DNA from: Streptomyces adustus | GTDB taxonomy: Bacteria > Actinomycetota > Actinomycetes > Streptomycetales > Streptomycetaceae | DNA length: 64,000 nt | Assembly: GCF_009377175.1 (NCBI RefSeq) | Contig: NZ_VJZD01000001.1 | Span: 1-64,000, forward strand | Direction of reading: 5' to 3' | Position numbers and translations under genes: made by a program | Shown here: positions 13-15,716 of the stretch, piece after piece | Position numbering within the stretch: the first letter of the stretch is position 1 | Layout: the number at the start of each line of letters is the position of its first letter | The notes under the pieces: generated by a model | Databases searched by the model: none | What the model saw: only the letters and a program-made list of their open reading frames with translations | What the model was told of the DNA's origin: nothing

Positions 13-14
13 GG

Positions 15-1232: not shown

Positions 1233-2942
1233 CTACCACCGCCCGCGGGCGGTGGCCGGTGCCGGTCTCACCGCCGTCTCCCGCGACCCGCCGGTGACCA
1301 GCGCCAGGAGCGCACCGGGGTCGCCGGGCTCCCGGTCGGTCCGCCAGGCGACGTGCTGGTCGGGGCGGATCAGCACCAGATCACGCTCGTACAGCTCACG
1401 CGCGAGCGGATCGTCGAGCGTCAGGGTCCGCAGCGGCACGCCCCGGGCCCGGGCCGCGGCCTCGATCCGTCCGGTGTACGGCGGACGCGGGCCGAGCCGC
1501 AGCAGCGTGAACCCGGGGCCGAACCGGTCGAACAGCGAACTGCCGTCCGTACGGCGGTCGTCGAGCCACAGATGGGGTGCACGGCCGCCCGGCACGGCCG
1601 AGGGCGTGTACGCGGCGAAGGAGTCGGGCACCGGCCCGGACCCGTCCCCGGCGACGACCGGGGAGCCGTCGTAGCGGGCACCCAGCTGCACCCCGAGGGT
1701 GTCCAGGGTGCGCATCCCGTACTCGGCGAGTTGCGCGCCGGTCCTGGCCCGGGCGGCCTCGCCCGCGGCGGAGTCCGCCTCCAGCCAGGCGGGCCGGTCC
1801 ACGGCGCCGAGGCCCTGGCCGAGGGTGCGGGCCGCCGCGGTGTTGCGCAGGGCGATCGGCCGGCGCTCGATTCCGTAGCTCTCCAGGAGATCCGGGCCCG
1901 CCCAGCCCTGCACGGCCGCCGCGAGTTTCCAGGCGAGGTTGGCGGCGTCGTCGACACCGGTGTTCATGCCGAAGCCGCCGTTGGGCGTGAACAGGTGCGC
2001 CGCGTCACCTGCGAGCCGGACACGGCCCGTGCCGAACGACTCGGCGACCAGGGCCGCGCCCGCGGTCCAGGGCCGGTGGCTGAGCACCTCGACCGGCAGG
2101 GGTTCCCCGGCCGCCCGCTGCACCAGCCGCACCAGGTCGGCGTCGGTCGCCGTGTCCGGGTCGACGGAGCTGGTGAGCAGGAAGAACTCGTCCACGCCGT
2201 CGAGCGCGATCAGGTTCAGCGCGAGCTCGGAGTTGACGACCCAGTTGCTCCAGGCGCCGCTGCCGCGCAGGAAGTCCCGGTACAGCGTGGGCACCCGCAG
2301 ATGGGCGGCGGTGGAACGGCGCCCGAGGATGTCCTGGTCGAGGGTGCCCTCTCCCACGTACCGGATGCCGAGGTGACGGCGGACCAGGCTGTGCCCGCCG
2401 TCGCATCCCGCGACGAACTCCGCCCGGAACGTGCGCCGGGCGCCGTCGCGTTCGGCCACGACGTCGACGTGCTCCGCGCTCTCGCGCAGCTCGGTGACCG
2501 TCCAGCCGTAACACAAGGTGAGGCGCGGCCTGGTGCGGGCGTGATCGAGCAGCAGCCGCTCGACGTACATCTGGTTCGCCCGGTGCATCGGTTCGGGGGA
2601 CGGGTCCGTACGGTCGGCCGCGGCCCGTCGGCGCAGCACCTCGCCGCTGCCCGGCCAGGGCAGCAGCGCCAGTTCGTGCGCGTTGTAGCGGGTGAAGAAG
2701 GAGATACCGGCCGAGTGCTCCGCGGGCAGACCGAGTCCGCGGATCCGCTCGGCCAGGCCGAGCGTGCGGTAGTGCTCCATGGTCCGCGCGTTGTGGGTGC
2801 TGCCACGCGGCTGATCGGGCACGTCCTGCTGGGAGTTGAGGACGACGCAGGGCACTCCCAGCCGGTCCAGCAGCAGCGCGAGCGTCAATCCGACCGGACC
2901 GCCACCGATCACGGCGACCGGGGTTGTCAGAGTGTCGTCCAT
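1233..2942 (-). CDS. FAD-dependent aromatic monooxygenase (PHBH/PheA class)
   Basis: A 569-residue group A flavoprotein hydroxylase. The N-terminal Rossmann motif GGGPVGLTLALLL binds FAD, the DG region appears as CDGGHSLVRRHLG near residue 185, and the second FAD motif GDAAHLFTPNGGFGMN is near residue 310. A thioredoxin-like C-terminal domain follows (about 440-550), as in the 550-600-residue phenol hydroxylase/PgaE group rather than the 390-residue core PHBH enzymes. The family uses NAD(P)H and O2 to hydroxylate phenols or decorate aromatic polyketides. GGAGGTGG precedes the ATG. It is divergent from the ligase/methyltransferase operon, so I infer that it hydroxylates the pathway's aromatic substrate; that substrate is unknown. 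Confidence 0.9.
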   Translation of the reverse strand: MDDTLTTPVAVIGGGPVGLTLALLLDRLGVPCVVLNSQQDVPDQPRGSTHNARTMEHYRTLGLAERIRGLGLPAEHSAGISFFTRYNAHELALLPWPGSGEVLRRRAAADRTDPSPEPMHRANQMYVERLLLDHARTRPRLTLCYGWTVTELRESAEHVDVVAERDGARRTFRAEFVAGCDGGHSLVRRHLGIRYVGEGTLDQDILGRRSTAAHLRVPTLYRDFLRGSGAWSNWVVNSELALNLIALDGVDEFFLLTSSVDPDTATDADLVRLVQRAAGEPLPVEVLSHRPWTAGAALVAESFGTGRVRLAGDAAHLFTPNGGFGMNTGVDDAANLAWKLAAAVQGWAGPDLLESYGIERRPIALRNTAAARTLGQGLGAVDRPAWLEADSAAGEAARARTGAQLAEYGMRTLDTLGVQLGARYDGSPVVAGDGSGPVPDSFAAYTPSAVPGGRAPHLWLDDRRTDGSSLFDRFGPGFTLLRLGPRPPYTGRIEAAARARGVPLRTLTLDDPLARELYERDLVLIRPDQHVAWRTDREPGDPGALLALVTGGSRETAVRPAPATARGRW

Positions 2943-3168
2943 CCGACGCCACCTCCAGCCTTCTCTCGATCGAACCGTTGCGATCGTTGCAACCCACGCT
3001 GAAGAACGGAGCTAGTTCAGCCGCTTGGTCGGCTTTCGCTCGGCCCTTTAGCAGCCGGTTGGAGACTCCGCAGCGAACCTTTCCCGAACCGCTGGGGTAT
3101 CACGGGCCGCGATGTCTCACCGGTGACCGAAGAATTCGGCGCATCACTGCGGAGTGTGAGGTATTCCT
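2943..3168. promoter_or_regulatory. Divergent control region with possible SARP heptamer repeats
   Basis: This 226-bp gap separates the divergent hydroxylase and ligase genes. At 3016-3048 there are three successive 11-bp units with related cores (TCAGCCG, GTCGGCT, CTCGGCC), and a TTTAGC-like -10 element follows directly. Direct heptamers at 11-bp spacing close to the -10 box are the known layout of SARP binding sites. The match is loose, so this is a candidate only. No ORF with coding character is present. Confidence 0.35.
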
Positions 3169-4887
3169 ATGTTCCTGTTCGGCACACACAGGTCCGCCGC
3201 GCAACGCCTGCGCCTCCACGCCGACCGGGACCTGGGGGCCGGGAACTTCTTCTGGCACGCGTGGCGCATCGCCCGTGACCGGGACCGTCCGCTGCTGTTC
3301 CACCCCGACGTGTCCTCCCCCACCTGGGCGACGGACGAGCCCCGGGCGATGTCCCTGGACGACGTGCGCGTCGCCGCGATCCGCTACGCCCACTGGTACC
3401 GCGGACGCGGGGTGCGGCCCGGGTCGCACGTGGGCCTGCACACCCGCGACGGGCTGCTCGGCCTGATCCACCACATCGCCATCACCTCGCTCGGTGCCGC
3501 CGCCGTGCACTGCAACCCCAAAATGGCTCCGGCCACGGCCGCCGAGTACTTCCTGCGCACCCGGACCACGGTGCTGGTGGGCGACGGCGACCTGCTCAAG
3601 GGCCTCGCGGACGCCTGGGCGTCGGACGCCCCCGGGAAGAGCACGCCCGTGGTCGCGGACATCGCCGTGCTCGCGGTCACCGCTCCCCTGCCGCCCCGGC
3701 CGATGCCCGGCTTCCCGCACCGGCACACCGCCGAGGACCTGATCATGATCTCGCACTCCTCGGGCACCACCGGGCGGCCCAAGGCCCCGGTGTTCCACCA
3801 CGGTTCGTTCTTCGCGGGCAAGCGGGAACGGCTGTGGTCCTTCCCCTCGCTGCGCTCCGACCGGCTGCTGACGGCACTGCCGCACAGCCACTCGGCGGGC
3901 ATCAGCTACCTCAGCCTGGCGATCCTGCTCGGCATCCCGACGCTGATCCTGGACGAGGCGAGCGGCGAGGCCGTGGCGCGGGCGGTCGACCTGTTCCACC
4001 CCACCACCGTGCTGGCCTTCCCGCTCACTCTGGCCGAGGTGCCCACCGAGGAGATCGGCGCCGAGGCCGCCCGGCACATCCACACCTGGCACGGCATGGG
4101 CGACGCCTCCCACGAGCGGCACATCCGCCCGCTGATCGCCCTGGGCCGGCGCACCGAGAACGGCAAGGTGCTGGACGGCTCGCGCTACCTCGACGGACTG
4201 GGGTCGTCGGAGATGGGGATGGTGCTGTTCAAACAGGCCTACACCCCCGAGACGACCCGGTACGCACGCCACATCGGACGGCCCGCCAAGGTGGTGCGCA
4301 AGGCGGCGGTGCTCGACGAGCAGGGCCGTGAACTGCCCGACGGGCAGGCCGGCCGGCTCGGGGTGCGGACCCCCAGCATCACCGCCGGCTACCTGGACGA
4401 GCCGGCCCTGACCGAGGAATCCACGGTCAACGGGTACTTCCTCACCGGTGACATCATGCGCCGCGACAGCGACGGCACCTGGTACCACCTCGACCGCACC
4501 CCCGACGTGATCCACACCGTCGAGGGACCCGTGCACAGCCTCCCGGTGGAGGAGGTCGTCCTGCTTGCGACCCAGGCGCTGGACACGGCGGTCGTCGCGG
4601 TCGACGACCCCGACGCCCCGGGTCACTCCCGCCCCCTGGCGGTCGCCCTCTTCACCGACGGCACCCCGCGCGACGCGGCCCGGCTGCTGAGGACGTGCAA
4701 CGCGGCCCTGGCCCGCGAGGGCCTGGCGCCGCTCGGCGGGCTGCTGTTGGCCGCCGAGCGCTCCGAACTCCCCGTCGGTGTCACCGGCAAGGTCCTCAAG
4801 CGCCTGCTGCGCGAGCGCCTGCGCGGCGTCCTGTCCCGCACCGGCGACCCCGCGCTCGCCGTGTCCGCCCCTGTACGGAAGGTCTGA
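3169..4887 (+). CDS. AMP-forming ligase/synthetase of the ANL superfamily
   Basis: A 572-residue adenylate-forming enzyme. The phosphate-binding loop SSGTTGRPK lies at residues 197-205, though the usual following Gly is Ala. GLGSSEMG supplies the A5-like adenylate contact, YFLTGDIM the conserved A7 Asp, and TGKVLKRLL near the C-terminus the catalytic Lys of A10. The A8 hinge (HLDRTPDVIHT) departs from the usual DRxKD...GGENV pattern, which suggests an unusual second half-reaction or acceptor. Family members make acyl-CoAs or acyl-adenylates; from memory, one branch (CreM of cremeomycin) activates nitrite for diazotisation. It is followed two bases later by the methyltransferase, so they are co-transcribed. 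GAGGT precedes the ATG. The substrate cannot be read from sequence. Confidence 0.85.
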   Translation: MFLFGTHRSAAQRLRLHADRDLGAGNFFWHAWRIARDRDRPLLFHPDVSSPTWATDEPRAMSLDDVRVAAIRYAHWYRGRGVRPGSHVGLHTRDGLLGLIHHIAITSLGAAAVHCNPKMAPATAAEYFLRTRTTVLVGDGDLLKGLADAWASDAPGKSTPVVADIAVLAVTAPLPPRPMPGFPHRHTAEDLIMISHSSGTTGRPKAPVFHHGSFFAGKRERLWSFPSLRSDRLLTALPHSHSAGISYLSLAILLGIPTLILDEASGEAVARAVDLFHPTTVLAFPLTLAEVPTEEIGAEAARHIHTWHGMGDASHERHIRPLIALGRRTENGKVLDGSRYLDGLGSSEMGMVLFKQAYTPETTRYARHIGRPAKVVRKAAVLDEQGRELPDGQAGRLGVRTPSITAGYLDEPALTEESTVNGYFLTGDIMRRDSDGTWYHLDRTPDVIHTVEGPVHSLPVEEVVLLATQALDTAVVAVDDPDAPGHSRPLAVALFTDGTPRDAARLLRTCNAALAREGLAPLGGLLLAAERSELPVGVTGKVLKRLLRERLRGVLSRTGDPALAVSAPVRKV

Positions 4888-4889
4888 TC

Positions 4890-5903
4890 ATGCCCGGTAC
4901 CGAGACGACGGCGGCACGTCAGGTGGTGGACCTGATCACCGGCACCTGGCGGGCCCAGGCCCTGCACGCGGCGGCCGCCCTGTCCCTGCCCGACCACATC
5001 GCCGCCGGACACGGCACCGTCCCGGCGCTGGCCGAACTCACGGGTGCCGGCGAGGACGGCCTCGCCCGGCTGCTGCGGCTGCTCGCGGCACTCGGCGTGT
5101 TCACCGGCGACGAGGAGGCGGGCTACGGGCTCGGTGACGTGGGCGCGCTCCTCGTCGCCGGCGGTGAACGGTCCATGCGCGACATGGTGTTGCTGTACGG
5201 GGAGGAGTTCCACCGCGCCTGGGGTGCGGTGGTGCCCGCGATCCTCACCGGCACCTCCGGCTTCGAGCACGCCTTCGGCACCTCGCTCCATGCCTATCTG
5301 CGCGAGGTGCCCGACGCGGGGCCGCGGTTCCTGCGGGCCATGAACGCCGGCAACGTGTTCTTCCCCGAGGTCGCGGCGGCCTTCGACTTCACGCGGGCGC
5401 GCACCGTGGTCGACGTGGCGGGCGGCAGCGGCCTGCTGCTGTCGGCCGTGCTCCAGGCCCATCCGCACCTGACGGGCTGCGTGTTCGACCTTCCGCACAT
5501 GCTGCCGGTGGCCGAGCGGCACCTGAGCGCAGCCGTCGGCGCCGACCGCTACGAGACCATCGCGGGCGACGTCTTCGACAAGGTCCCCGCGGGCCACGAC
5601 GTGTACCTGCTGTCCCGGGTGCTCCAGGACTGGGACGACGAACGATGTGTGACGCTCCTCGCCAACATCCGCGAGGCCATGGCGGACACGGGACGGCTGC
5701 TGGTGCTGGAGCGGGTCGTCGCCACCGACGGCACGGCTCCGGTGCTGCCGCTGCTGTGGGATCTGCATCTGCTGATGGCCGCGGGCGGCCGCGAGCGCAC
5801 CCTCGGCGGCTACCGCTCCGTGCTGGGCGCCGCGGGCCTGCGCCTGGAGAGCGTGCACTCGCTCGCCCTCGAGACGAGTCTGCTGGTCGCCGCACCGGTA
5901 TGA
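4890..5903 (+). CDS. SAM-dependent O-methyltransferase (AcmO/caffeate-OMT type)
   Basis: A 337-residue class I methyltransferase. The N-terminal half (about 1-110) is the winged-helix dimerisation domain, and motif I VVDVAGGSGLLL near residue 172 binds SAM. The acidic end of beta 2 and the stretch RVLQDWDDERC match the small-molecule O-methyltransferase family (PF00891). Such enzymes methylate phenolic hydroxyls in aromatic natural products. The gene starts two bases after the ligase stop, which implies translational coupling. With a flavin hydroxylase next door, hydroxylation followed by O-methylation is a natural order of steps. The local metK would supply its cofactor. Confidence 0.9.
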   Translation: MPGTETTAARQVVDLITGTWRAQALHAAAALSLPDHIAAGHGTVPALAELTGAGEDGLARLLRLLAALGVFTGDEEAGYGLGDVGALLVAGGERSMRDMVLLYGEEFHRAWGAVVPAILTGTSGFEHAFGTSLHAYLREVPDAGPRFLRAMNAGNVFFPEVAAAFDFTRARTVVDVAGGSGLLLSAVLQAHPHLTGCVFDLPHMLPVAERHLSAAVGADRYETIAGDVFDKVPAGHDVYLLSRVLQDWDDERCVTLLANIREAMADTGRLLVLERVVATDGTAPVLPLLWDLHLLMAAGGRERTLGGYRSVLGAAGLRLESVHSLALETSLLVAAPV

Positions 5904-5951
5904 GGCGGCCCCTCCGTCCCAGCCCTCTCCTGACACCCATGGAGTACACCT

Positions 5952-7922
5952 ATGCCCAGCGATGACCTCGACCTGTGCCTCGTCGGCGCGGGACCGCGCG
6001 GTCTGTCGGTACTGGAGCGGCTGTGCGCCAACGAACGCGCCGCGTCCGCTCACCGGGCGGTCACCGTGCACGTCGTCGACCCCTACCGTCCCGGAGCCGG
6101 GCGGGTGTGGCGCACCGGACAGTCGCGGGTGCTGCTGATGAACACCGTCGCCTCACAGGTGACCGTGTTCACCGACGCCAGCGTGAAGATCGACGGTCCC
6201 GTGGAACCGGGACCCAGTCTGTACGAGTGGGCGCGCACGCTCGGTGACGGGCCCGGCGGGGCGACGCTCTACGACGAGGCCGTGCTCGCCGAGGCCCGTC
6301 GGCTGGGCCCGGACGACTACCCGTCCCGTGCCTTCTACGGCCGCTACCTGGAGGACGTCTTCGCCCGGCTGGTGTCCAACGCCCCGCCGCACCTGCGGAT
6401 ACGGGTGCACCAGGCCCGGGCCGTCGCCCTGCGGGAGCGGCCCGAGGACGGCGCGCAGCAGGTCGTCCTGTCCGACGGTCAGGTCCTCGACGGTCTCGAC
6501 GCGGTCGTTCTCTCCCAGGGCCATGTGCCGATCGACGTCTCCCCGGCCGAACGGCAGCTCTCGCAGCGCGCGCGGGCCCGCGGACTGCTGCACGTCCTGC
6601 CGTCCAACCCGGCCGACCTGGACCTGTCGGACGTGCGCTCCGGCGAGACGGTGCTGCTGCGCGGGCTCGGCCTGAACTTCTTCGACCACACGGCACTGCT
6701 CACCCTGGGGCGCGGCGGCCGTTTCGACCGCGTGGGCGCGCGTCTGGTGTACCGCCCGTCCGGCCGGGAACCGCGCATCGTCGCGGGCTCCCGGCGCGGC
6801 ATCCCGTACCACGCCCGCGGCGCCAACGAGAAGGGCGCGCACGGCCGTCACGAGCCGCGGGTGCTGACCGAGGAAGTGGTCGCGGGGCTGCGCAAGCGCG
6901 CGGTGGACGGTGAGCGCGTGTACTTCGGCATCGACCTGTGGCCGCTGATCACCCGGGAGGTGGAGAGCGTCTACTACGGGGCGCTGCTGGCCGCCCGCGG
7001 CCGGGAGGCCGAACGGGAGGAGTTCGTCGAGCGGTTCGTCTCGCTGCCCGAAGACCCGGCGCTGGCCGACGAGTTGCTCGACGCGTACGACATCGCACCC
7101 GAGGAGCGGTGGACCTGGGATCGGATCCTCCAGCCGCACGGCGACCTGGAGTTCGCCGACCGGGCGGAGTTCCGCCGCTGGATGCTGGAGCATCTGCGCC
7201 AGGACGTGCGCGAGGCCCGGGCGGGCAATGTGAGCGGGCCGCTCAAGGCGGCGCTGGACGTGCTGCGCGACCTGCGCAACGAGGTGCGGCTGGCCATCGA
7301 CCACGGCGGCCTGGACGGCACCTCCTACCGGGACGAGGTGGAGGACTGGTACACCCCGCTGAACGCCTTCCTGTCGATCGGACCGCCCTTCTCCCGCATC
7401 GAGGAGCTGATCGCGCTGGTGGAGGCGGGCGTCCTTGACCTGATCGGTCCGGGCATGCGGGTGCGTGTCGACGGTACGGCGGGAGCGTTCGTCGCCGAGT
7501 CGGACGGGGTGGGGGGCGCCCCCGTATTCGCCAGGGTGCTGGTCGAGGCCCGCCTGCCGGCCCCGGACCTGCGCCGGACCTCCGATCCGCTGCTGCGCGG
7601 GCTGTTGTCCACGGGGCAGTGCCGTCCGTTCCGCATCCCCGGTGCGTGCGGCACGAGTTACGAGACGGGTGGCCTGGAGGTGACCGAGCGCCCGTACCAC
7701 CTGGTCGACGCCTACGGCCGCAGTCATCCCCGGCGCTTCGCGTACGGGGTGCCGACGGAGGCGGTGCACTGGGTGACCGCGGCCGGCATCAGGCCCGGGG
7801 TGAACTCGGTGACCCTGGGCGACTCCGACGCCATCGCGCGGGCGGTACTGGCCCTGGCCCCCGCCGCCACGAGCGCCGCCGGGCGGCACTCCGGCAAGAC
7901 GCTGACGGAGGCACCGGCATGA
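5952..7922 (+). CDS. FAD/NAD(P)-binding oxidoreductase (PF13454-like, N-oxygenase candidate)
   Basis: A 656-residue protein opening with an FAD Rossmann motif GAGPRGLSVLERL (residues 10-22), typical of the NAD_binding_9 (PF13454) group. A second nucleotide-binding segment LLRGLGLNFFDHTALLT lies near residue 236, and the C-terminus (EAVHWVTAAGIRPG) is characteristic of long actinobacterial members. From memory, the aspartate N-oxygenases that start nitrous-acid formation (CreE, FzmM) have this length and fold, but the family also includes many enzymes of unknown role. The nitrosuccinate lyase partner is not in the window, though the contig ends 6 kb upstream. It lies 48 bp behind the methyltransferase in the same operon. 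Oxidoreductase is well supported; N-oxygenation is speculation. Confidence 0.7.
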   Translation: MPSDDLDLCLVGAGPRGLSVLERLCANERAASAHRAVTVHVVDPYRPGAGRVWRTGQSRVLLMNTVASQVTVFTDASVKIDGPVEPGPSLYEWARTLGDGPGGATLYDEAVLAEARRLGPDDYPSRAFYGRYLEDVFARLVSNAPPHLRIRVHQARAVALRERPEDGAQQVVLSDGQVLDGLDAVVLSQGHVPIDVSPAERQLSQRARARGLLHVLPSNPADLDLSDVRSGETVLLRGLGLNFFDHTALLTLGRGGRFDRVGARLVYRPSGREPRIVAGSRRGIPYHARGANEKGAHGRHEPRVLTEEVVAGLRKRAVDGERVYFGIDLWPLITREVESVYYGALLAARGREAEREEFVERFVSLPEDPALADELLDAYDIAPEERWTWDRILQPHGDLEFADRAEFRRWMLEHLRQDVREARAGNVSGPLKAALDVLRDLRNEVRLAIDHGGLDGTSYRDEVEDWYTPLNAFLSIGPPFSRIEELIALVEAGVLDLIGPGMRVRVDGTAGAFVAESDGVGGAPVFARVLVEARLPAPDLRRTSDPLLRGLLSTGQCRPFRIPGACGTSYETGGLEVTERPYHLVDAYGRSHPRRFAYGVPTEAVHWVTAAGIRPGVNSVTLGDSDAIARAVLALAPAATSAAGRHSGKTLTEAPA

Positions 7923-8053
7923 CGGCACGCCCGGCGCCGCCGCGGGCCGGACCGCACCCCGGCCGACCGGCGGACCCGCTCGCTCCGGCCACGTACACGC
8001 GCGCGGTCACCTCCCGGGTGCACCACGCCCCAAGAGGTCACCGCACACCCTGA
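7919..8053 (+). CDS. Possible 44-residue coupled small protein
   Basis: This small frame begins with an ATGA overlap on the stop of the FAD/NAD(P)-binding gene and ends 34 bp before the metK start. Its third codon positions are mostly G/C, as in real genes here. The product is Pro/Arg/His-rich with no recognisable motif. It may be a genuine coupled peptide or only the open tail common in GC-rich DNA. Confidence 0.2.
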
Positions 8054-8087: not shown

Positions 8088-9308
8088 ATGTCTGCCCGGC
8101 TCTTCACCTCGGAATCGGTCACCGAAGGCCATCCCGACAAGCTCGCCGACCGGATCAGCGACACGATCCTCGACGCCCTCATCGCCCAGGACCCCACGGC
8201 CCGGGTCGCGGTGGAGACCCTGATCACCACCGGTCAGGTCCATGTCGCGGGCGAGGTCACCACCAGCGCGTACGCCGACATCCCCGCCCTCGTGCGCCAG
8301 GCGGTCCTGGAGATCGGCTACGACTCCTCCGCCAAGGGCTTCGACGGCGCCTCCTGCGGGGTGTCCGTGTCCATCGGGGCCCAGTCCCCGGACATCGCCC
8401 AGGGCGTCGACAGCGCCTACGAGCAGCGGGTCGACGGCGCTTCCTCCGCCGAGGAGGACCGGCTGGCCCGCCAGGGCGCCGGTGACCAGGGTCTGATGTT
8501 CGGTTACGCCTGCGACGAGACGCCGAGCCTCATGCCGCTGCCCATCCACCTGGCCCACCGCCTGTCGCGGCGGCTGTCGGAGGTGCGGCGCGACGGGACC
8601 GTGCCCTATCTGCGCCCGGACGGCAAGACCCAGGTCACCATCGAGTACCTGGGCAGCAAGCCCAAGCGCCTCGACACGGTCGTCGTGTCGTCGCAGCACA
8701 CCAGCGACATCGACCTGGACTCCCTGCTCACCCCGGATGTGCGCGAACACGTCGTCGAGCACGTCCTGGACGAGCTGGCCCAGGAGGGCATCAAGCTGGA
8801 GACCGAGGGCTACCGCCTGCTGGTCAACCCCACCGGCCGGTTCGAGATTGGCGGCCCGATGGGCGACGCCGGCCTCACCGGCCGCAAGATCATCATCGAC
8901 ACCTACGGCGGCTACGCCCGCCACGGCGGCGGTGCCTTCTCCGGCAAGGACCCCTCCAAGGTCGACCGTTCGGCCGCGTACGCGATGCGCTGGGTCGCCA
9001 AGAACGTCGTCGCCGCGGGGCTCGCCTCCCGCTGCGAGGTGCAGATCGCGTACGCCATCGGCAAGGCCGAGCCCGTCGGTCTCTTCGTCGAGACCTTCGG
9101 CACCGCCACCGTGCCGCAGGCCTCCATAGAGAAGGCCGTGACGGCGGTCTTCGACCTGCGTCCGGCCGCGATCATCCGGGATCTGGACCTGCTGCGCCCC
9201 ATCTACGCCCAGACCGCCGCCTACGGGCACTTCGGCCGCGAGCTGCCCGACTTCACCTGGGAGCGGACCGACCGCGTCGACGCGCTGCGCCGGGCCGCCC
9301 GGCGGTAG
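8088..9308 (+). CDS. metK: S-adenosylmethionine synthetase
   Basis: A 406-residue, full-length methionine adenosyltransferase that makes SAM from methionine and ATP. Visible signatures are [12 protein letters not shown] near residue 14 (with the ATP-contacting His), [12 protein letters not shown] near 127, and the glycine-rich [22 protein letters not shown] near 250. AGGAGTTCTC precedes the ATG. Streptomyces carry a housekeeping metK elsewhere, so a copy inside a cluster with a methyltransferase is probably a dedicated SAM supply. A strong hairpin follows the gene. Confidence 0.97.
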
Positions 9309-9397: not shown

Positions 9398-10366
9398 ATG
9401 CGTGTAGCCGTGACCGGTGCCATCGCGACCGATCAGGTGCTGACCGTCGCGGGCCGGCTCACCGACGGCACGGCGATGGGCCGCGGCGCCGCGGCGGTGC
9501 GGGCCGAGACCCTGCATGTGCGCCGGGGCGGGGCGGGCGCCAACATCGCGGTGGGACTGGGCCGGCTCGCCCTGCGCCCGCTGCTGGCCGGTGCGGTCGG
9601 CAAGGACTTCGCCGACTACGGCCGCGACTTGCAGTCGTACGGCGTGGACCTCGAACTCGTGCACGTCAGCGAGGAACTGGACACGGCCCGGGCGGTGGAG
9701 ATCAGGGACACCGAGGACGGCCGGCTCAGGCTGTCGTACGACGGCGCGCAGCCGGAGTCCCGGCGCATCACCCTGCTGCCGGCCGCACGCCGCATCGGCG
9801 GGCTGGGGCTCGTGGTGGTGGCGGCGGGGGACATCGAGGCCATGGTCCGGCACACCGAGGAGTGCAGGCGGCTCGGCATCCCCTTCGCCGCCGACCCCGG
9901 CGACCGGCTGTCCCGCCTCACCGGCCGCCAGGCGCGCAGACTGGTCGACGGGGCCCGTTACGCCTTCACGGACGAGTTCGACGTACCGCTGCTGCGCGAA
10001 CTCACCGGGTGGGGCGACGCGGAGCTGCTCAACCGGGTGGGCACCTGGGTCGTCACCCGCGGGCTGCGCGGCGTGGCCGTCCTGCGGCGCGGACGCCCCG
10101 CGAACCGGGTGGAGGCGGTACGCGCGGCGCAGGGGGGCGACCCGTCGGGAACCGCCGAGGCGTTCCGCGCCGGCTATCTGGCGGGTGCCGTCTGGGGATG
10201 GTCCGCCGAGCGCGGGGCGCAGCTCGGCTGCGCCCTGGCGGCAGCCGCACTCGAATCGAACGACGCACAGGGATATCCGCTGATGCGGGAGCGGCTGACG
10301 GCCCGTATCCGGTGCACGTACGGCCCGGAGGCCGCGGATCAAATAGCCGCCCGATTGCCCTCCTGA
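9398..10366 (+). CDS. PfkB-family sugar/nucleoside kinase homologue (adenosine-kinase-like)
   Basis: A 322-residue ribokinase-fold protein. The N-terminal glycine-rich motif RRGGAGANIAVGLGRL (near residue 43) and the adenosine-kinase-like opening AVTGAIATDQ are clear. The second signature normally reads DTxGAGDxF and supplies the catalytic Asp. Here it is DPSGTAEAF, so the anion-hole glycine is changed and residue 254 is Glu. Activity may therefore be altered or lost. Adenosine kinase beside metK would clear the adenosine released when S-adenosylhomocysteine is recycled, favouring methylation. I chose the ATG at 9398 with TAGGAG nine bases upstream over the in-frame TTG at 9389. Confidence 0.8.
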   Translation: MRVAVTGAIATDQVLTVAGRLTDGTAMGRGAAAVRAETLHVRRGGAGANIAVGLGRLALRPLLAGAVGKDFADYGRDLQSYGVDLELVHVSEELDTARAVEIRDTEDGRLRLSYDGAQPESRRITLLPAARRIGGLGLVVVAAGDIEAMVRHTEECRRLGIPFAADPGDRLSRLTGRQARRLVDGARYAFTDEFDVPLLRELTGWGDAELLNRVGTWVVTRGLRGVAVLRRGRPANRVEAVRAAQGGDPSGTAEAFRAGYLAGAVWGWSAERGAQLGCALAAAALESNDAQGYPLMRERLTARIRCTYGPEAADQIAARLPS

Positions 10367-10400: not shown

Positions 10401-10515
10401 GGCAGCTCGGCACCGCACGCTCCGGCCGTCCCTCGACGCCCGCTCGCACCGGTCTGCAACACCCTGTCCCCGAACGGTGTTTGTCCCAGTGATGGACGTC
10501 GAGGCAGAGCAGCCG
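10401..10515 (+). repeat. Copy A of a 115-bp duplication: relic of a SARP end plus sigma start
   Basis: This segment aligns without gaps to 11442-11556 at an offset of 1041 bp. The best-conserved stretch (10452-10517) shows only seven mismatches in 66 positions. In copy B the same bases encode the last residues of the second SARP, the sigma promoter and the first codons of the sigma factor. Here the SARP part has lost its stop (GSSAPHAPAV instead of GSSALDAPVV) and the sigma part decays after MDVEAEQPT. It is a fossil of an earlier SARP-sigma junction. Confidence 0.8.
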
Positions 10516-10612
10516 ACACGGCACCCGGGTCGTCACGCGCGGGTCTCGCGTTCGAATAGCGAGAAAAGAAAACCGGCCGACCGACCCGATTCAATACCAC
10601 CCGCTTTTCCAA

Positions 10613-10641: not shown

Positions 10642-10703
10642 TGCTCGAGAAAAATAGAATGCCAGTTCGAGATGTGAAGACATTACGGGGATAGGAACTC
10701 TTC

Positions 10704-11480
10704 ATGAACTCAGGTATTCTCGGCCCGCTCCTGCTGTCCGATACGGAGGAAAATCTGGTCCCGAGCGCGCCGAAACCGCGCCAGCTCCTCGCCTTTCTGA
10801 TGCTGCACACCCCGCAGATGGTGCGGGCCAGCGACTGCATCACCGAGCTGTGGGGATCGACTCCCCCCAAGAGCGCGATGTCCACGCTCCAGACCTACGT
10901 GCTCCACATCCGGCAGGCCCTGCGCGGCCCCCGCAGGGACCGCAGCCATCTGCTCCTGACCAGGAACCAGGGCTACCAGCTCACCCTCGAAACGACCGAT
11001 TTCGACCGCTTCCGGTTCACGGAGCTGACCCGGCTGGGACACCTGGCGACGGCCGCCGGCAACCATCGGACGGCGTCGGAGATGTTCACCCTGGCCCTCG
11101 CGCAGTGGCGCGGTCCCGCGCTGTCCGACGTCAGCGCGGGCCCCCTCAGCTCACCGCATCTGGCGGAACTGGCGGAGACCCGGCAAGGTGTCCTGGAGCA
11201 GCGCATCGAGGCCGACCTGGCGCTCGGCAAGCATCGTGAGCTGGTCGACGAGCTCAGTGATCTGGCCGCGCGCCACCCCACCCACGAGAACGTGCACGCT
11301 CAGCTGATGGTCGCGCTCTACCGCTCCGGCGAGCGCAAACGCGCCGGTGACGTCTTCCAGGGGCTTCGCCGGGCGCTCGGTGACACCCTGGGGATCGAGC
11401 CCGTGCCGCGGATGCGGCGCCTGTACCAGGCGGTCCTGGTCGGCAGCTCGGCGCTGGACGCTCCGGTCGTCCGCCGATGA
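10704..11480 (+). CDS. SARP-family transcriptional activator (2)
   Basis: A 258-residue SARP with a winged-helix N-terminal domain (ILGPLLLSD, KPRQLLAFLMLHTPQ) and a bacterial transcriptional activation domain (DFDRFRFTELTRLG, ALYRSGERKRAGDVF). Its length matches minimal pathway SARPs of the RedD/ActII-4 type, with no ATPase or TPR extension. GGGATAGGA precedes the ATG. Its 3' end runs directly into the sigma-factor promoter, so regulator and sigma unit are physically linked. Two SARPs flanking one set of biosynthetic genes suggests layered control. Confidence 0.92.
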   Translation: MNSGILGPLLLSDTEENLVPSAPKPRQLLAFLMLHTPQMVRASDCITELWGSTPPKSAMSTLQTYVLHIRQALRGPRRDRSHLLLTRNQGYQLTLETTDFDRFRFTELTRLGHLATAAGNHRTASEMFTLALAQWRGPALSDVSAGPLSSPHLAELAETRQGVLEQRIEADLALGKHRELVDELSDLAARHPTHENVHAQLMVALYRSGERKRAGDVFQGLRRALGDTLGIEPVPRMRRLYQAVLVGSSALDAPVVRR

Positions 11481-11556
11481 CCGTTCCCGTCTGTCTGCAA
11501 CACCCTGCGCCCGGACGGTGTTTGTACCAGTGATGGACGACAAGGCAGAGCAGCTG
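11442..11556 (+). repeat. Copy B of the 115-bp duplication (functional copy)
   Basis: This is the intact partner of the relic at 10401-10515. It spans the last 13 codons of SARP 2, the intergenic promoter and the first eight codons of the sigma gene. Both arms of the AACACC/GGTGTT inverted repeat are unchanged between copies; mismatches in this stretch fall in the spacer and flanks. Confidence 0.8.
11498..11524 (+). promoter_or_regulatory. Putative autoregulated ECF promoter/operator
   Basis: CAACACC and GGTGTTTG form 6-bp inverted arms (11499-11504 and 11517-11522) around a 12-bp spacer. CAAC followed about 17 bp later by GTGTTT also resembles the -35/-10 arrangement of ECF-sigma promoters. 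If so, transcription would begin almost at the sigma start codon, giving a leaderless message, consistent with the lack of a ribosome site there. The same element in the relic at 10457-10483 is conserved. Confidence 0.5.
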
Positions 11557-12123
11557 ACCGAACTCCTGGCGGCGCACCTCGAAGCCGGCTTCACCGAGCT
11601 GGTGCGGGTGCACGCCGGGGCGGTGCACGCGTTCCTGTACCGAGTCTCCGGCTCCTTCGCCGAGGCGGACGACCTGGGGCAGGACACGTTTCTGCGCGCC
11701 TACACGGCCCTCCAGGGCTATTCCGCCGCACGGCGCCGTGAACTACGGCCACGGGCGTGGTTGATGACCATCGCGGCGAACGTGTGGCGCAACCACGTCC
11801 GTACCCGGAAACGGCGCCCGGTCACGGCCGGACTGCCCGTGGAGGAGACCATGGACGTCTGGCCGGACCACAGCCCCGGTCCGGAGGAGCGCGCGGCGAC
11901 GACGGAGGAGCGGTCTCGTCTGGTCACCGCCTTGTCGGCGTTACCCGAGCACCATCGCATACCGGTCGTGCTCCACCATGTGATCGGAATGAGTTACTCG
12001 GAGGTGGCCGAGGTGCAGGGCTGCGCCGTCGGCACCGCGAAGGCGCAGGTCTCCCGTGGGCTGGCCGGCCTGCGACGCCTGTTGGAATCGGAGCCCACCG
12101 CGCTGAAGGAGGTGACGAGGTGA
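11533..12123 (+). CDS. ECF-family RNA polymerase sigma factor
   Basis: A 196-residue sigma factor with region 2 (YRVSGSFAEADDLGQDTFLRAYTALQ, core binding and -10 recognition; WLMTIAANVWRNHVR) and region 4 (ALSALPEHHRIPVVLHHVIGMSYSEVAEV followed by GTAKAQVSRGLAGLR, -35 recognition). There is no Shine-Dalgarno; a GTG directly before the ATG is an alternative start, and a leaderless transcript is likely. The next gene overlaps the stop by GTGA, so they are co-translated. That partner is an alkyl-DNA repair fusion rather than a recognisable anti-sigma factor, which points to a sigma factor tied to alkylation damage. Confidence 0.92.
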   Translation: MDDKAEQLTELLAAHLEAGFTELVRVHAGAVHAFLYRVSGSFAEADDLGQDTFLRAYTALQGYSAARRRELRPRAWLMTIAANVWRNHVRTRKRRPVTAGLPVEETMDVWPDHSPGPEERAATTEERSRLVTALSALPEHHRIPVVLHHVIGMSYSEVAEVQGCAVGTAKAQVSRGLAGLRRLLESEPTALKEVTR

Positions 12124-12920
12124 ACGAAAGCGAGGACGACGCGGTCGCGCGGCGTCTGCCGGATCTCGCATCGGCCGCACCGGAGGACTTCGCGCTGCGC
12201 GTGCTGCGCCGTGTGGGCATCTCCGCGGACCACTACGACAGCTACGTACACCTCGACACGGCCGCGGGCGGGCTGTTCGTGGCCGCGAGCCCCCAGGCCG
12301 TGACCGGTGCCTGCCTGGACTCGGCGGGCCTGACCGCGACCGCCTTCGAGGAACTGCACCGGGCACGCACCGGGCGCTCGGCGATCCCGGGCAGCAAGCC
12401 GTTGCCCGGGCTCATCCCGGCACTGCGCACGGGCCGGGCGCGCCGGCTGGCGATCGACCTGTCCGGGCTGCCGGACGAGCAGCGCGCGGTCCTCCAAGCC
12501 GTACGGAACATCCCCGCGGGGCAGTTGCGGCCGCTGAGCTGGATCGCCCGCGAGGCCGACACCGGGACTCCGCCCTCGGCCTCCGACGTCCTGCACGCGC
12601 TGGCGGCCAACCCCGTCGCCGTGCTCATACCGTGCCACCGGGTCACGCACGACAACGGAGCGCCGTGCGACGCCGCGTACCTGCCGAGGACCGGCGAGGC
12701 CCTGCGCCGCGCGGAGCACATCGACATGCGCCGGGTGACGGAGCTGTCCAGGGCCGGCGCGGTCTTCCTCGGCAGCGACACCACGTACATCTACTGCCAC
12801 CCGACCTGCGCCCACGCCCGCCGCATCACGCCCGGGCACCGGGTGCACTTCCGCACCGCGCACGACGCCCGCGAGGCGGGTTACCGGGCCTGCAAGAGCT
12901 GTCGGCCCCTCACCGTCTGA
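12120..12920 (+). CDS. Ogt-type alkyltransferase fused to a C-terminal Ada zinc domain
   Basis: A 266-residue protein in reversed Ada order. Residues 75-210 are the O6-alkylguanine-DNA alkyltransferase region with the acceptor motif IPCHRV (Cys172). Residues 215-264 are the Ada zinc/methylphosphotriester domain: FLGSDTTYIYC, with Cys226, Cys230, Cys258 and Cys261 spaced as in E. coli Ada Cys38/42/69/72. In Ada, methylation of the first Cys turns the protein into a DNA-binding activator. No AraC DNA-binding domain is present here. Translational coupling to the ECF sigma (GTGA overlap, AAGGAGG upstream) suggests it senses alkylation and controls that sigma factor; this control is inference. Confidence 0.88.
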   Translation: MNESEDDAVARRLPDLASAAPEDFALRVLRRVGISADHYDSYVHLDTAAGGLFVAASPQAVTGACLDSAGLTATAFEELHRARTGRSAIPGSKPLPGLIPALRTGRARRLAIDLSGLPDEQRAVLQAVRNIPAGQLRPLSWIAREADTGTPPSASDVLHALAANPVAVLIPCHRVTHDNGAPCDAAYLPRTGEALRRAEHIDMRRVTELSRAGAVFLGSDTTYIYCHPTCAHARRITPGHRVHFRTAHDAREAGYRACKSCRPLTV

Positions 12921-12984
12921 CCCGGGCACCGTCCGACCCGGCGCACCCACAGAGCACCACACAGCACCGCAGAAAGGTCCATCC

Positions 12985-13530
12985 ATGCGCACCCCACCCA
13001 CCGCGGCACTCGCCGCGCACCGGACCCCGCTGGGCTCCCTGACCCTCGCGGCCACCGACGAGGCGCTGGTGCTGTGCGCCTTCGACGACCGTGAGCAGGC
13101 GGTGGCCCGGATCGCCCGCGGTGACCTCACCGCCGTGGACACCGACGCCGCCACCCCCGCCCAGCTGCGGATCATCGAGGAGGCGGGCCGTCAGGTGGAC
13201 GCGTACCTCGAAGGCCGCAGCCGCACGTTCACCGTGCCCATGGACCTCCGCCTGGCCACCCCGTTCAGCCGCACCACCGTGGAACGGCTGGACAGCCTCC
13301 TTCCGTACGGGGTGACGGGCACCTACGCCGAGCTGGCCGCCGCGCTCGGGCGGCCGCGGGCCGCGCGGGCCGTGGGCACCGCGCTCGGCGCGAACCCCCT
13401 GTGCGTGGTGCTTCCCTGTCACCGGGTCGTCGGCTCGGGCGGACGCCTGACCGGCTACGCCGGCGGTGTCGAGGCCAAGCGGTTCCTGCTCGACCTGGAG
13501 TCCGGCGGCACGCCCGCGGCCTCCCTCTGA
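12985..13530 (+). CDS. ogt: Methylated-DNA--protein-cysteine methyltransferase
   Basis: A 181-residue O6-methylguanine-DNA methyltransferase. The active-site motif LPCHRVVGSGGRLTGYAGG contains the acceptor Cys145, and the preceding GTYAELAAALGRPRAARAVG is the conserved DNA-binding recognition helix region. The protein removes O6-alkyl groups from guanine by irreversible transfer to the Cys. It follows the Ogt-Ada fusion by 64 bp on the same strand. Two alkyltransferases side by side within a biosynthetic cluster suggest protection from a self-made alkylating agent. Confidence 0.96.
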   Translation: MRTPPTAALAAHRTPLGSLTLAATDEALVLCAFDDREQAVARIARGDLTAVDTDAATPAQLRIIEEAGRQVDAYLEGRSRTFTVPMDLRLATPFSRTTVERLDSLLPYGVTGTYAELAAALGRPRAARAVGTALGANPLCVVLPCHRVVGSGGRLTGYAGGVEAKRFLLDLESGGTPAASL

Positions 13531-13533
13531 ACC

Positions 13534-13572
13534 GGCGGGCGCCGGAGCAATCCCCCGCCTCCGGCGCCCGCC
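13534..13572 (+). terminator. Hairpin between ogt and the oxygenase gene
   Basis: A perfect 14-bp inverted repeat (GGCGGGCGCCGGAG and its complement) with an 11-base loop lies three bases after the ogt stop. There is no T-tract. It may partly terminate or protect the repair transcript before the oxygenase gene, which begins 26 bp later. Confidence 0.6.
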
Positions 13573-13597
13573 TCCTTCCACGACCGCGGAGCCGACA

Positions 13598-14383
13598 GTG
13601 ACCAGCTACCACACCCCACACCTGCCGGGCCTGGACCACGGCCACGTGCCCGGCGCGCCCGACGCGGGCACCGACGACACGATCGAACTGCCCGCCGTGG
13701 ACGCGCTGGACTGGTCCGCGCTGACCACGGCACTGGACGCCGAGGGCGTCGCCGTCACCCCGCCCCTGCTGTCGCCGCGCGCCTGCGAGGAGATGCGGGC
13801 GCTGTTCGACCGGGACGAGGTGTTCCGCAGCACCGTCGACATGAGCCGCCACCGCTTCGGGAGCGGCCGCTACCGCTATTTCGCCGCCCCGCTGCCCCCG
13901 GTGGTGGCCGCCCTGCGCAGGCAGCTGTACCCGCCGCTGGCCCGGATCGCCAACCAGTGGGCGGAGCGCCTGGACGGGCCCCGGTTCCCGTCGACCCACG
14001 CCGAACTGACGGCGGCGTGCGCCGCGGCCGGACAGCTGCGGCCCACTCCCCTGCTGTTGCGCTACGGTCCCGGCGACTACAACTGCCTGCACCAGGACGT
14101 CTACGGCGAGCTGACGTTCCCGCTCCAGGTGGCGGTGATGCTGGACCGGCCCGACGTCGACTTCACCGGCGGTGAGAGCGTCTTCGTCGAGCAGCGTCCG
14201 CGCGCCCAGTCCCGTCCGGTGGTGAAGCGGCCGGGCCAGGGGCAGGGACTGATCTTCGCGGTGCACGACCGCCCGGTCCCGTCGACGCGCGGCTGGAGCC
14301 GCTTCATGCTGCGCCACGGGGTGAGCACGGTGCACGACGGCCGACGGCACGTCCTCGGCGTGATCTTCCACGACGCCCCGTGA
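13598..14383 (+). CDS. 2OG-Fe(II) oxygenase linked to alkylation repair (PF09859-like)
   Basis: A 261-residue protein resembling the Oxygenase-NA/DUF2086 family, described as oxidising alkyl damage on DNA and often found beside ada genes. The jelly-roll metal triad is visible as H165-x-D167 in LHQDVYGEL and a distal His, probably H240 in LRHGVS. HRFGSGRYRYF, DFTGGESVFVEQRPR and LGVIFHDAP are family hallmarks. The GTG at 13598 is chosen over an upstream ATG inside ogt that would add an arginine/proline-rich leader. It completes a repair trio (Ogt-Ada, Ogt, oxygenase) analogous to Ada/Ogt/AlkB. Confidence 0.85.
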   Translation: MTSYHTPHLPGLDHGHVPGAPDAGTDDTIELPAVDALDWSALTTALDAEGVAVTPPLLSPRACEEMRALFDRDEVFRSTVDMSRHRFGSGRYRYFAAPLPPVVAALRRQLYPPLARIANQWAERLDGPRFPSTHAELTAACAAAGQLRPTPLLLRYGPGDYNCLHQDVYGELTFPLQVAVMLDRPDVDFTGGESVFVEQRPRAQSRPVVKRPGQGQGLIFAVHDRPVPSTRGWSRFMLRHGVSTVHDGRRHVLGVIFHDAP

Positions 14384-14531
14384 CGCCCGGGTCGCTGCCG
14401 GGTCGGGGGCCGGTGCCGGTAAGGGGCCGCTTTCCGGCCATCGTCCCCGTGGACGACGCGCCGCCGACGGCGGCCGGGTTAGCGTGCGAGGGACAGGAAG
14501 ATCGACAAGCGTCACGGCGACGGGGACACCC

Positions 14532-15716
14532 ATGGACATCATCGACCTGACGGCCTACGGCGAGCGCTTCACCGCCGATCCGCACCCGTTCCTCGCCGCA
14601 CTGCGCGAACAGGGGCCGGTGCACAAGGTGCGCGACGCCGGCGGGGGTGAGTTCTGGCTGATTGTCGGCCACGAGGAGGCGCGGGCCGCGCTCGCCGACC
14701 CGCGTATGTCCAAGGACCTGCGGAAGCTGGGCTGGGACGTCTACGACGCCGATCTCATCGGACGCCACATGCTGATCTCCGACCCGCCCGAGCACACCCG
14801 ACTGCGCAGGCTGGTCAGCCGTGAGTTCACCCCGCGCCGGGTCGAGGCGCTGGCACCGCGCGTCCAGGAGATCACCGACGGGCTGCTGGACGCCATGCTG
14901 GAGCGGCCCGACGGGCGGGCCGACCTCGTGGAATCGCTGGCCTACCCGCTGCCCATCACCGTCATCTGCGAACTGCTGGGCGTGCCCGACATGGAGCGCG
15001 CGGAGTTCCGGCGCTGGTCCAACGAGGTCGTGGCGCCCACCAGCGAGGAGGCGGCGTTCCGGGCCTTCGGTGAACTCAGTGCCTTCCTGGCGTCGTTGAT
15101 CGAGACCAAGCAACGCACCCCCGGCGACGACCTGATGAGCGCGCTGATCCGCACCACCGAGGAGGACGGCGACCGGCTGTCCTCCGGCGAACTGGTCGGC
15201 ATGGCCTTCCTGTTGCTGGTGGCCGGCCACGAGACCACGGTCAACCTGATCTCCAACGGAGTGCGCGCCCTGCTCGCCCACCCCGAACAACTGGCCGCGC
15301 TGCGGGCCGACATGAGCCTCCTCGACGGCGCCATCGAGGAAATGCTGCGCTACGACGGTCCGCTGGAGTCGGCGACCAACCGCTGCACCACCGAGCCCGT
15401 GGAGATCGGCGGCACCGTCGTCCCCGCCCTGGAGCCGGTGCTGATCTCGCTCGCCGGCGCCCACCGCGATCCGAGCCGCTACGAGGACCCCGACACCTTC
15501 GACATCCGTCGCGAGGCCCGCGGCCACCTCGGATTCGGCCACGGCATCCACTTCTGCATCGGCGCGCCCCTGGCCCGGCTGGAAGGCCGGATCGCGCTGC
15601 GCTCGCTGCTGGAGCGCTGCCCGGAGCTCGCCCTGGACACCCGTCCGGACGCGCTGGAGTGGCTGCCGGGACTGCTCATCCGCGGCACCCGCACCCTGCC
15701 CGTCCGTTTCGCCTGA
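14532..15716 (+). CDS. Cytochrome P450 (CYP107/105-like)
   Basis: A 394-residue soluble actinobacterial P450. The I-helix motif is LLLVAGHETT, the K-helix ExxR is EEMLR, and the haem loop FGHGIHFCIG carries the proximal ligand Cys342. HTRLRRLVSREFTPRR is the usual C-helix region. Such enzymes hydroxylate or couple natural products using separate ferredoxin partners, none of which are encoded nearby. Its position after the repair genes suggests a late tailoring step, but it could belong to neighbouring chromosome. Confidence 0.93.
   Translation: MDIIDLTAYGERFTADPHPFLAALREQGPVHKVRDAGGGEFWLIVGHEEARAALADPRMSKDLRKLGWDVYDADLIGRHMLISDPPEHTRLRRLVSREFTPRRVEALAPRVQEITDGLLDAMLERPDGRADLVESLAYPLPITVICELLGVPDMERAEFRRWSNEVVAPTSEEAAFRAFGELSAFLASLIETKQRTPGDDLMSALIRTTEEDGDRLSSGELVGMAFLLLVAGHETTVNLISNGVRALLAHPEQLAALRADMSLLDGAIEEMLRYDGPLESATNRCTTEPVEIGGTVVPALEPVLISLAGAHRDPSRYEDPDTFDIRREARGHLGFGHGIHFCIGAPLARLEGRIALRSLLERCPELALDTRPDALEWLPGLLIRGTRTLPVRFA

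What the first reader, a model, noticed from the sequence alone, without database searches (positions are those of the whole stretch)
1233..15716. Compact biosynthetic cluster carrying its own alkylation-repair suite
Genes for a flavin hydroxylase, ANL ligase, O-methyltransferase, a PF13454-type flavoprotein, P450, dedicated metK and a kinase-like protein lie beside an Ogt-Ada fusion, an Ogt and a PF09859-like oxygenase, under two SARPs and an ECF sigma. I see no PKS or NRPS genes. Repair of O6-alkylguanine and methylphosphotriesters inside a cluster fits self-resistance to a DNA-alkylating product, for example a diazo, N-nitroso or azoxy aromatic. The link is inferred from gene neighbourhood alone.
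Basis: partly seen in the sequence, partly recalled or inferred. Interest (0 to 1): 0.86.

Follow-up and report, generated by a model that had tools for sequence, protein, structure and literature searches.

The report
Gene cluster with streptozotocin-type DNA-repair cassette
A Streptomyces gene cluster that probably makes a reactive nitrogen-nitrogen (diazo-type) compound carries the same DNA-methylation repair and sensing genes as the clusters for the DNA-methylating drug streptozotocin, which suggests that its unknown product also alkylates DNA.

Summary
The genes are there, but the window holds only the right half of a ~34 kb cluster; the left half is on contig C36. The set can make 3-amino-4-hydroxybenzoate, has a CreE-type nitrite enzyme, a CreM/AvaA6-type ligase, methyltransferases and a SAM supply; creD is a 44-codon remnant here but intact in most relatives. 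The repair suite is real: ECF sigma, Ogt-Ada, Ogt, PF09859, plus Ada-AraC on C36. Ogt-Ada occurs in 14 of 392 Streptomyces genomes: all 6 with this diazotase, all 7 with a close SznF (streptozotocin enzyme), and one orphan. A promoter-like motif (TGCAAC-N14-CGGTGTT) has four exact matches in the 10.2 Mb genome, all in this cluster, before the ECF operon and biosynthetic or regulatory genes. The Ada zinc site is kept in 28 of 28 Ogt-Ada proteins, the Ogt arginine finger in 1, so I read Ogt-Ada as the sensor of an ECF switch. Self-resistance to a DNA-alkylating product is well supported; product, DNA damage and sensing are not shown. A 2025 paper already listed one such region and its likeness to cremeomycin and streptozotocin clusters.

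The parts
1..221 (+). adapter-like remnant (1-12), then the C-terminal codons of an MFS transporter whose remainder ends contig C36
   Evidence: frame read; C36 end and relatives
222..1094 (-). SARP regulator 1 (BTAD + Trans_reg_C)
1233..2942 (-). FAD-dependent aromatic hydroxylase
   Evidence: PF01494/PF21274; in 14 of 14 long regions
3169..4887 (+). ANL enzyme, diazotase-like (CreM/AvaA6 type)
   Evidence: NCBIfam NF058622 AvaA6 diazotase E 7e-102, 341.6 bits, below its cut-off of 975; 24 relatives at 64-91%
4890..5903 (+). O-methyltransferase (PF00891)
5952..7922 (+). CreE-type FAD N-oxygenase (PF13454), first enzyme of the nitrite (ANS) pathway
   Evidence: PF13454; only PDB match at E 0.001 is 8cp2 'FAD-binding protein', 684.6 bits; next to creD in relatives; role from review passages
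7919..8053 (+). creD remnant: in-frame, 44 codons plus stop, its first and last codons alike those of intact creD
   Evidence: intact in 12 of 14 long regions; an intact copy matches PDB CreD 5xny E 3e-162
8088..9308 (+). second metK (S-adenosylmethionine synthetase)
   Evidence: TIGR01034; other copy G000:C115, 85%
9410..10366 (+). PfkB-family kinase (adenosine/ribokinase-like)
10455..10481 (+). exact TGCAAC-N14-CGGTGTT in a ~97-base duplicate of the ECF 5' region, 223 bases before SARP 2
10704..11480 (+). SARP regulator 2
11496..11522 (+). exact TGCAAC-N14-CGGTGTT, 7 bases before the ECF start codon (GTG 11530): putative autoregulated ECF promoter
11530..12123 (+). ECF sigma factor
   Evidence: TIGR02937 82.2 bits, cut-off 42.9
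12120..12920 (+). Ogt-Ada: degenerate Ogt domain plus C-terminal Ada zinc domain, overlapping the ECF stop; proposed alkylation sensor
12985..13530 (+). Ogt, O6-alkylguanine-DNA alkyltransferase with PCHRV and RAVG in its sequence
   Evidence: PF01035/PF02870; sequence
13598..14383 (+). PF09859 2OG-Fe(II) oxygenase
   Evidence: E 4e-77
14532..15716 (+). cytochrome P450, probably not part of the conserved cluster
   Evidence: 2 of 14 regions (own and one distant 44% match)

Best explanation
This is the right half of a ~34 kb cluster for a 3-amino-4-hydroxybenzoate-derived compound that passes through an ATP-dependent diazotisation (or N-nitrosation), whose product or breakdown species alkylates DNA, most likely by methyl transfer. 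GriI/GriH types make 3,4-AHBA; flavin hydroxylases and O-methyltransferases decorate it, fed by extra metK, MTHFR and PfkB kinases; CreE and a CreD (here supplied in trans, or lost) give nitrite; the CreM-like ligase joins nitrite to the aryl amine. The cell protects itself with Ogt, the PF09859 oxygenase and an Ada-AraC protein. An ECF sigma and its translationally overlapping partner Ogt-Ada form a switch: the Ada zinc site of Ogt-Ada reads methylphosphotriesters and the ECF then transcribes its own operon and biosynthetic genes from TGCAAC-N14-CGGTGTT promoters. Shown by sequence: gene content, conservation, linkage to SznF and diazotase clusters, motif, loss of Ogt residues. Inferred: enzyme activities, DNA alkylation, sensing, sigma control.
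For: Gene content; contig join; creE/creD types; conservation in 14 long regions. Ogt-Ada in 14 of 392 Streptomyces; diazotase ortholog (68-100%) in 6 of 392, all 6 with Ogt-Ada; SznF ortholog (71-100%) in 7 of 392, all 7 with Ogt-Ada; one of these SznF proteins scores 1038 bits against PDB SznF 6m9r, with the cassette just upstream. 22 genomes with only distant ANL homologs (35-46%): 0 of 22 have Ogt-Ada. SznF-type Ogt-Ada not one clade, p-AU 0.004. Motif: 4 exact matches in the own genome, all in the cluster; in 10 genomes 24 of 27 lie in the clusters or (G363) at the orphan cassette, reversed control 0; 34 of 39 exact matches in the regions scanned precede a matched cluster gene. Ada zinc site kept in 28 of 28 rows, Ogt Cys in 24 of 28, Arg at the finger position in 1 of 28.
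Against: No metabolite, no DNA adduct, no knock-out. Aryl diazo compounds are not typical O6-alkylguanine makers (recalled chemistry), so the alkylating species is a guess. creD is truncated here, so this strain's cluster may be dead unless C99 supplies nitrite. PF09859 is common without the cluster (98 of 392), and CreE-type proteins are common too (111 plasmid records). ECF-Ogt-Ada pairs exist outside Streptomyces in ordinary neighbourhoods. One Streptomyces orphan (G363) has the cassette with neither cluster, with its Ogt Cys changed to Ser. The identity bounds for 'ortholog' were set after seeing the hits; only the top 3-6 first-look candidates were scored per genome; genomes are not independent. 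The ECF of one SznF cluster (L162) lacks the motif, and G005 has no exact match.
Confidence: 0.74

Rival explanations
1. The cassette is a general adaptive response to environmental alkylation that happens to lie in or near secondary-metabolite clusters; the product itself does not alkylate DNA.
For: PF09859 in 98 of 392 genomes; three non-Streptomyces ECF-Ogt-Ada pairs without such clusters nearby and with intact Ogt residues; orphan G363.
Against: In Streptomyces 13 of 14 Ogt-Ada carriers have a SznF or diazotase cluster, in 12 of these 13 on one contig within about 10 kb; the motif lies before biosynthetic genes; streptozotocin methylates DNA (review passage).
Confidence: 0.15
2. The repair genes guard against nitrite or nitrosative by-products of the CreE/CreD pathway (nitrosated amines that methylate DNA), not against the final product.
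For: The nitrite pathway and a methyl supply are both in the cluster.
Against: 22 genomes with only distant diazotase homologs, many presumably with nitrite pathways (not checked), have no Ogt-Ada; the own second CreE/CreD/ANL cluster on C99 shows no cassette gene in the 19 kb fetched.
Confidence: 0.2
3. In this strain the cluster is a decaying remnant: creD is gone and no product is made.
For: 44-codon creD remnant; one further region, G022, also shows no creD, though its genes are broken by many frameshifts.
Against: The other cluster genes in the window are open, and nearly all scored at 82-96% identity to G001 (the MFS gene is cut by the contig gap); a CreD-type gene with CreE is on C99; 72 of 134 ava-type clusters in print lack avaE/avaD (passage).
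Confidence: 0.3

Closest known systems
Candidate region NZ_CP047019.1 (A7X85_RS43410-43525) in Biochemistry 2025, PMC12224297 (section 9 read)
   Same: Aldolase and DHQS-II like cremeomycin, CreE- and CreD-like genes, 2OG-Fe oxygenase, two MGMT genes and a sigma factor like those of streptozotocin clusters, small SARP. Very probably the same cluster family.
   Different: That section gives the similarities only: no self-resistance reading, census, promoter motif, Ada-domain analysis or metabolite. I did not compare its sequence directly.
Streptozotocin (SznF) clusters
   Same: ECF, Ogt-Ada, Ogt and often PF09859 beside SznE/SznF/Rieske/ATP-grasp genes; same promoter motif in most. PMC9040887 introduction, passage: AlkB and AGT homologs reverse streptozotocin alkylation.
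   Different: No SznF in the own genome at E 1e-40; here N-N chemistry is CreE plus a CreM-like ligase on an aryl amine.
Cremeomycin cluster (CreE, CreD, CreM; 3,4-AHBA-derived diazoquinone)
   Same: 3,4-AHBA synthesis, nitrite pathway, ANL diazotase; hydroxylase and O-methyltransferase by recall.
   Different: HpaB/HpaC, two BBE oxidases, cupin, SDR, metK/MTHFR/PfkB and the repair cassette look extra by recall; whether the cre cluster has repair genes was not tested (primary paper not held).
Avenalumic / p-coumaric acid clusters (AvaA6, CmaA6)
   Same: AvaA6 is the best NCBIfam model for the ligase; 3,4-AHBA and ANS genes (passages).
   Different: No KS-CLF gene among the cluster genes scanned here; score well below the AvaA6 cut-off.
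E. coli Ada / adaptive response
   Same: Ada zinc Cys4 site and an AGT fold in one protein.
   Different: Domain order reversed, no AraC HTH in this protein; an ECF sigma is its operon partner; Ogt half degenerate.

Membership tests
CreE/CreD/CreM-type aryl-amine diazotisation cluster | CreM/AvaA6-type ANL ligase | tested here: inconclusive
   AvaA6 model E 7e-102 but 341.6 bits against cut-off 975; activity untested
CreE/CreD/CreM-type aryl-amine diazotisation cluster | CreE-type aspartate N-oxygenase | tested here: met
   PF13454, PDB 8cp2 684.6 bits, syntenic with creD in relatives; homology only
CreE/CreD/CreM-type aryl-amine diazotisation cluster | CreD nitrosuccinate lyase in the cluster | tested here: not met
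   44-codon remnant in the window; intact in 12 of 14 long regions
CreE/CreD/CreM-type aryl-amine diazotisation cluster | 3,4-AHBA synthesis (GriI/GriH types) | tested here: met
   on C36 and in 14 of 14 regions
Streptozotocin (SznF) cluster | SznF N-nitrosating enzyme | tested here: not met
   no match in own genome at E 1e-40
Streptozotocin (SznF) cluster | ECF / Ogt-Ada / Ogt cassette | tested here: met
   7 of 7 close SznF genomes and own
Ada adaptive-response regulator (for Ogt-Ada) | Ada zinc Cys4 methylphosphotriester site | tested here: met
   28 of 28 rows
Ada adaptive-response regulator (for Ogt-Ada) | AraC-type DNA-binding domain | tested here: not met
   absent; a separate Ada-AraC is on C36
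O6-alkylguanine-DNA alkyltransferase (for Ogt-Ada) | catalytic Cys and arginine finger | tested here: inconclusive
   window protein keeps PCHR but has Ser at the finger position; Cys in 24 of 28, Arg in 1 of 28
Self-resistance cassette | deletion sensitises the producer | not testable with these tools
   needs mutants

The most novel reading that the evidence does not exclude
ECF-Ogt-Ada is an alkylation-sensing sigma switch: an Ada methylphosphotriester site, separated from any AraC domain and carried on a decayed Ogt, licenses a dedicated ECF sigma that drives both repair and biosynthesis of a DNA-methylating metabolite, a feed-forward loop in which the toxin's own DNA damage turns on its production and resistance. 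It has moved between two unrelated N-N chemistries. The warhead here could be an ortho-methoxy aryl diazonium, which can give up its O-methyl group to become a quinone diazide (recalled chemistry), so that SAM supply and diazotisation together make a methylating agent.
Probability: 0.3. Interest if true: 0.82.

Novelty: new variant of a known kind. Interest (0 to 1): 0.66.

Why it matters
If right, ECF-Ogt-Ada is a resistance-guided beacon for undiscovered DNA-methylating metabolites (the one such region in print lay outside antiSMASH classes), and it shows a repair-and-sensing module shared by two unrelated nitrogen-nitrogen chemistries. It also offers a testable new form of the Ada response, with an ECF sigma in place of the AraC domain.

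Tried and rejected
The idea that the 1233-15716 block is a complete compact cluster was rejected: the contig is cut in an MFS gene and C36 holds the rest. The 387-aa Ogt-Ada with a long novel N-terminus was rejected as an out-of-frame ECF read. The P450 as a core gene was rejected. PF09859 as a marker of the cluster was rejected (98 of 392). The C184 creD-like gene was rejected as a nitrite enzyme: it lies beside protocatechuate dioxygenase and carboxymuconolactone genes. Known metabolite names were sought and none tied to the cluster: crx (PMC11429834; abstract, passages, section 18), ahb (PMC10179220; abstract, passages), the diazo-capture paper (PMC13061610; passages), PMC11177257 (term search, no passage). 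Searches for prior art: (methylphosphotriester + sigma factor + Ada + ECF) gave 0 papers in the held library, which lacks most subscription papers. No Rfam family reached its threshold in window 1-22000. A plasmid search with the CreE protein gave 111 records; the 20 listed are all Streptomyces at 60.5-66.8% and were not followed.

Rows dropped before counts: of 38 Ogt-Ada rows, 10 were left out as truncated or duplicate, leaving 28 (one of them, L019, lacks its N-terminus), and 11 in the tree, leaving 27 (the orphan was left out of the label count). Of 26 loci the two weak ones (25%, 28%) were dropped. Of 24 relatives, Ogt-Ada was seen in 17; of the other 7, L013 and L027 showed it once more DNA was fetched and L006, L016, L020, L022 and L026 stop at a contig end. 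At the bare search thresholds, 37 genomes have an ANL or SznF hit (28 + 9), of which 13 have Ogt-Ada, against 1 of the other 355.
Full report
What is there. The window is contig C111 of a 10.2 Mb genome in 562 contigs; its genus is Streptomyces by inference (nearest named relatives; and G724, 'same genus', gives the same contig number and nearly the same place as the named S. sp. WAC06614 contig). Codon-position gene calling puts the ECF sigma at 11530-12123 and the true Ogt-Ada at 12120-12920, overlapping its stop; the 387-aa reading starts inside the ECF gene.

The cluster is cut. The first 12 bases look like a transposon adapter (recalled), followed in frame by the last codons of an MFS gene. 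A DNA search with the left part of relative L005 finds it at 86-90% on own contig C36, whose end lies in the same MFS gene. C36 adds a PfkB kinase, MTHFR, a flavin monooxygenase, a berberine-bridge-type oxidase, GriI-type aldolase, GriH-type DHQS-II (3,4-AHBA synthesis), a second AMP ligase, an Ada-AraC protein, MFS and HpaB, and, by likeness to genes of relatives, a flavin reductase, a class I O-methyltransferase, a second BBE oxidase, cupin and SDR. The order is the same in relative G001.

Relatives. One scan with the ANL protein found 24 real relatives in Streptomyces and Streptacidiphilus (64-91%) and two weak ones. In 14 long regions, own included (tblastn, best piece at least 38% identical), FMO1, the ANL, OMT2, CreE, GriI and GriH are in 14 of 14; ECF and Ogt-Ada in 12 of 14, the two misses (G002, G021) being cut by a contig end on the side where the relatives have them; CreD in 12; metK in 10; MTHFR in 10; Ogt in 11; PF09859 in 11; Ada-AraC in 12; the P450 in 2, counting a 44% match 24 kb from the ANL gene. 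GriH-type genes are in 23 of 23 relative genomes held, though not always in the cluster itself; one relative, L018, was not held.

Chemistry. The PF13454 protein has one PDB relative, an FAD-binding protein (684.6 bits); the gene after it in relatives matches PDB CreD (E 3e-162). Review passages give CreE and CreD as the aspartate-nitrosuccinate pathway and CreM as the diazotase of the cremeomycin amine. The ANL's best NCBIfam model is AvaA6 diazotase, well below cut-off, so it is a homolog with unproven substrate. In this strain creD is a 44-codon in-frame remnant; the only other credible copy found is on C99 beside a CreE and a 40% ANL, since the C184 gene sits among catabolic genes. About half of the published ava-type clusters also lack the nitrite genes (72 of 134, passage). 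The window metK is one of two in the genome.

The key test. Ogt-Ada at E 1e-40 is in 14 of 392 Streptomyces genomes. The diazotase at E 1e-80 is in 28 of 392: 6 at 68-100% identity, all 6 with Ogt-Ada, and 22 at 35-46% only, none with it. Seeing SznE/SznF-type genes beside Ogt-Ada in genomes without the diazotase, I searched SznF: 9 of 392 at E 1e-40, 7 of them at 71-100%, all 7 with Ogt-Ada; the two at 40% and 28% lack it. The G386 protein matches PDB SznF at 1038 bits against 1098 for itself, from two programs. So 13 of 13 close N-N clusters have it against 1 of 379 other genomes (Fisher p 2e-23); the identity bounds were set after the hits were seen, only 3-6 candidates per genome were scored, and genomes are related, so the p-value is a guide only. 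In 12 of the 13 both genes are on one contig within about 10 kb; in G069 they are on different contigs. The lone orphan G363 has a Ser in place of the Ogt Cys. The Ogt-Ada tree of 27 rows rejects a single SznF clade (p-AU 0.004, three label changes), though L162 has a long branch. Among 384 genomes across the class, 7 have Ogt-Ada, of which three lie outside the genus; these pairs stand without the cluster or SznF genes in the 15-27 kb fetched, and one (L191) has only about 3 kb on one side.

Regulation. TGCAAC-N14-CGGTGTT, or a close form, stands just before the ECF start in nearly all loci read; L162 is an exception. The exact motif occurs four times in the own genome, all in this cluster on both contigs; in ten genomes 24 of 27 matches lie in the clusters or at the G363 cassette, 3 elsewhere (G020 one, G389 two), and the reversed control gives none. 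Of 39 exact matches in the regions, 34 precede a matched gene: ECF 13, SDR 8, ATP-grasp 4, FMO3 3, MFS 3, ANL2 2, SARP2 1; five precede none of the reference genes, and G005 has no match. Near forms also stand, by eye, before the ECF gene of the non-Streptomyces pairs. This fits an ECF that controls itself and biosynthesis; sigma binding is not shown.

Ogt-Ada as a sensor. The best AlphaFold model (mean pLDDT 87; the five range from 63 to 87) is AGT-like, and Foldseek finds E. coli Ada-C, MtOGT and, weakly, N-Ada. In 28 distinct Streptomyces and Streptacidiphilus rows the Ada zinc motif is in all, the Ogt Cys in 24, Arg at the finger position (placed by spacing; role recalled) in 1; the three distant pairs keep Arg and Cys. 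The Ogt half has therefore drifted in the cluster-associated clade while the Ada site is held. That the Ada site signals to the ECF is inference.

Known or new. A 2025 paper (PMC12224297, section 9 read) lists a region with the same mix of cremeomycin-like and streptozotocin-like genes, including two MGMT genes and a sigma factor. The family is thus in print as a candidate cluster. The introduction of PMC9040887 (passage) cites AlkB and AGT homologs as target repair against streptozotocin. What this work adds is the census, the exchange between two chemistries, the motif and the Ogt-Ada reading; I found no print of these, in a library that lacks most subscription papers.

Noticed in passing
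window 7919-8053: creD reduced to a 44-codon in-frame remnant between creE and metK, while 12 of 14 long regions have it intact; could be a real deletion or an assembly error.
   Followed up: partly
window 10421-10517 and 11462-11558: About 97 bases of the ECF promoter and first codons are duplicated upstream of SARP 2, as if SARP 2 had been inserted with a copied end.
   Followed up: partly
L158 and L160 (G389, G113): SznE/SznF clusters that also carry GriI/GriH-type 3,4-AHBA genes and an ANL2-like ligase beside the same cassette: a possible hybrid nitrosourea-aminobenzoate cluster.
   Followed up: no
L067 (own contig C99, 31001-50000): A second CreE/CreD/ANL cluster in the same genome, with an amine oxidase and a further AMP ligase, product unknown.
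   Followed up: partly
L191, L192, L193: Stand-alone ECF plus Ogt-Ada pairs outside Streptomyces with intact Ogt residues and a near form of the same promoter motif: perhaps the ancestral form of the switch.
   Followed up: partly
window 1-12: Contig begins with what looks like an uncut sequencing adapter end.
   Followed up: no
98 of 392 Streptomyces genomes; L172, L173: PF09859 oxygenases are widespread, some beside Ogt genes without Ogt-Ada (L172, L173).
   Followed up: no
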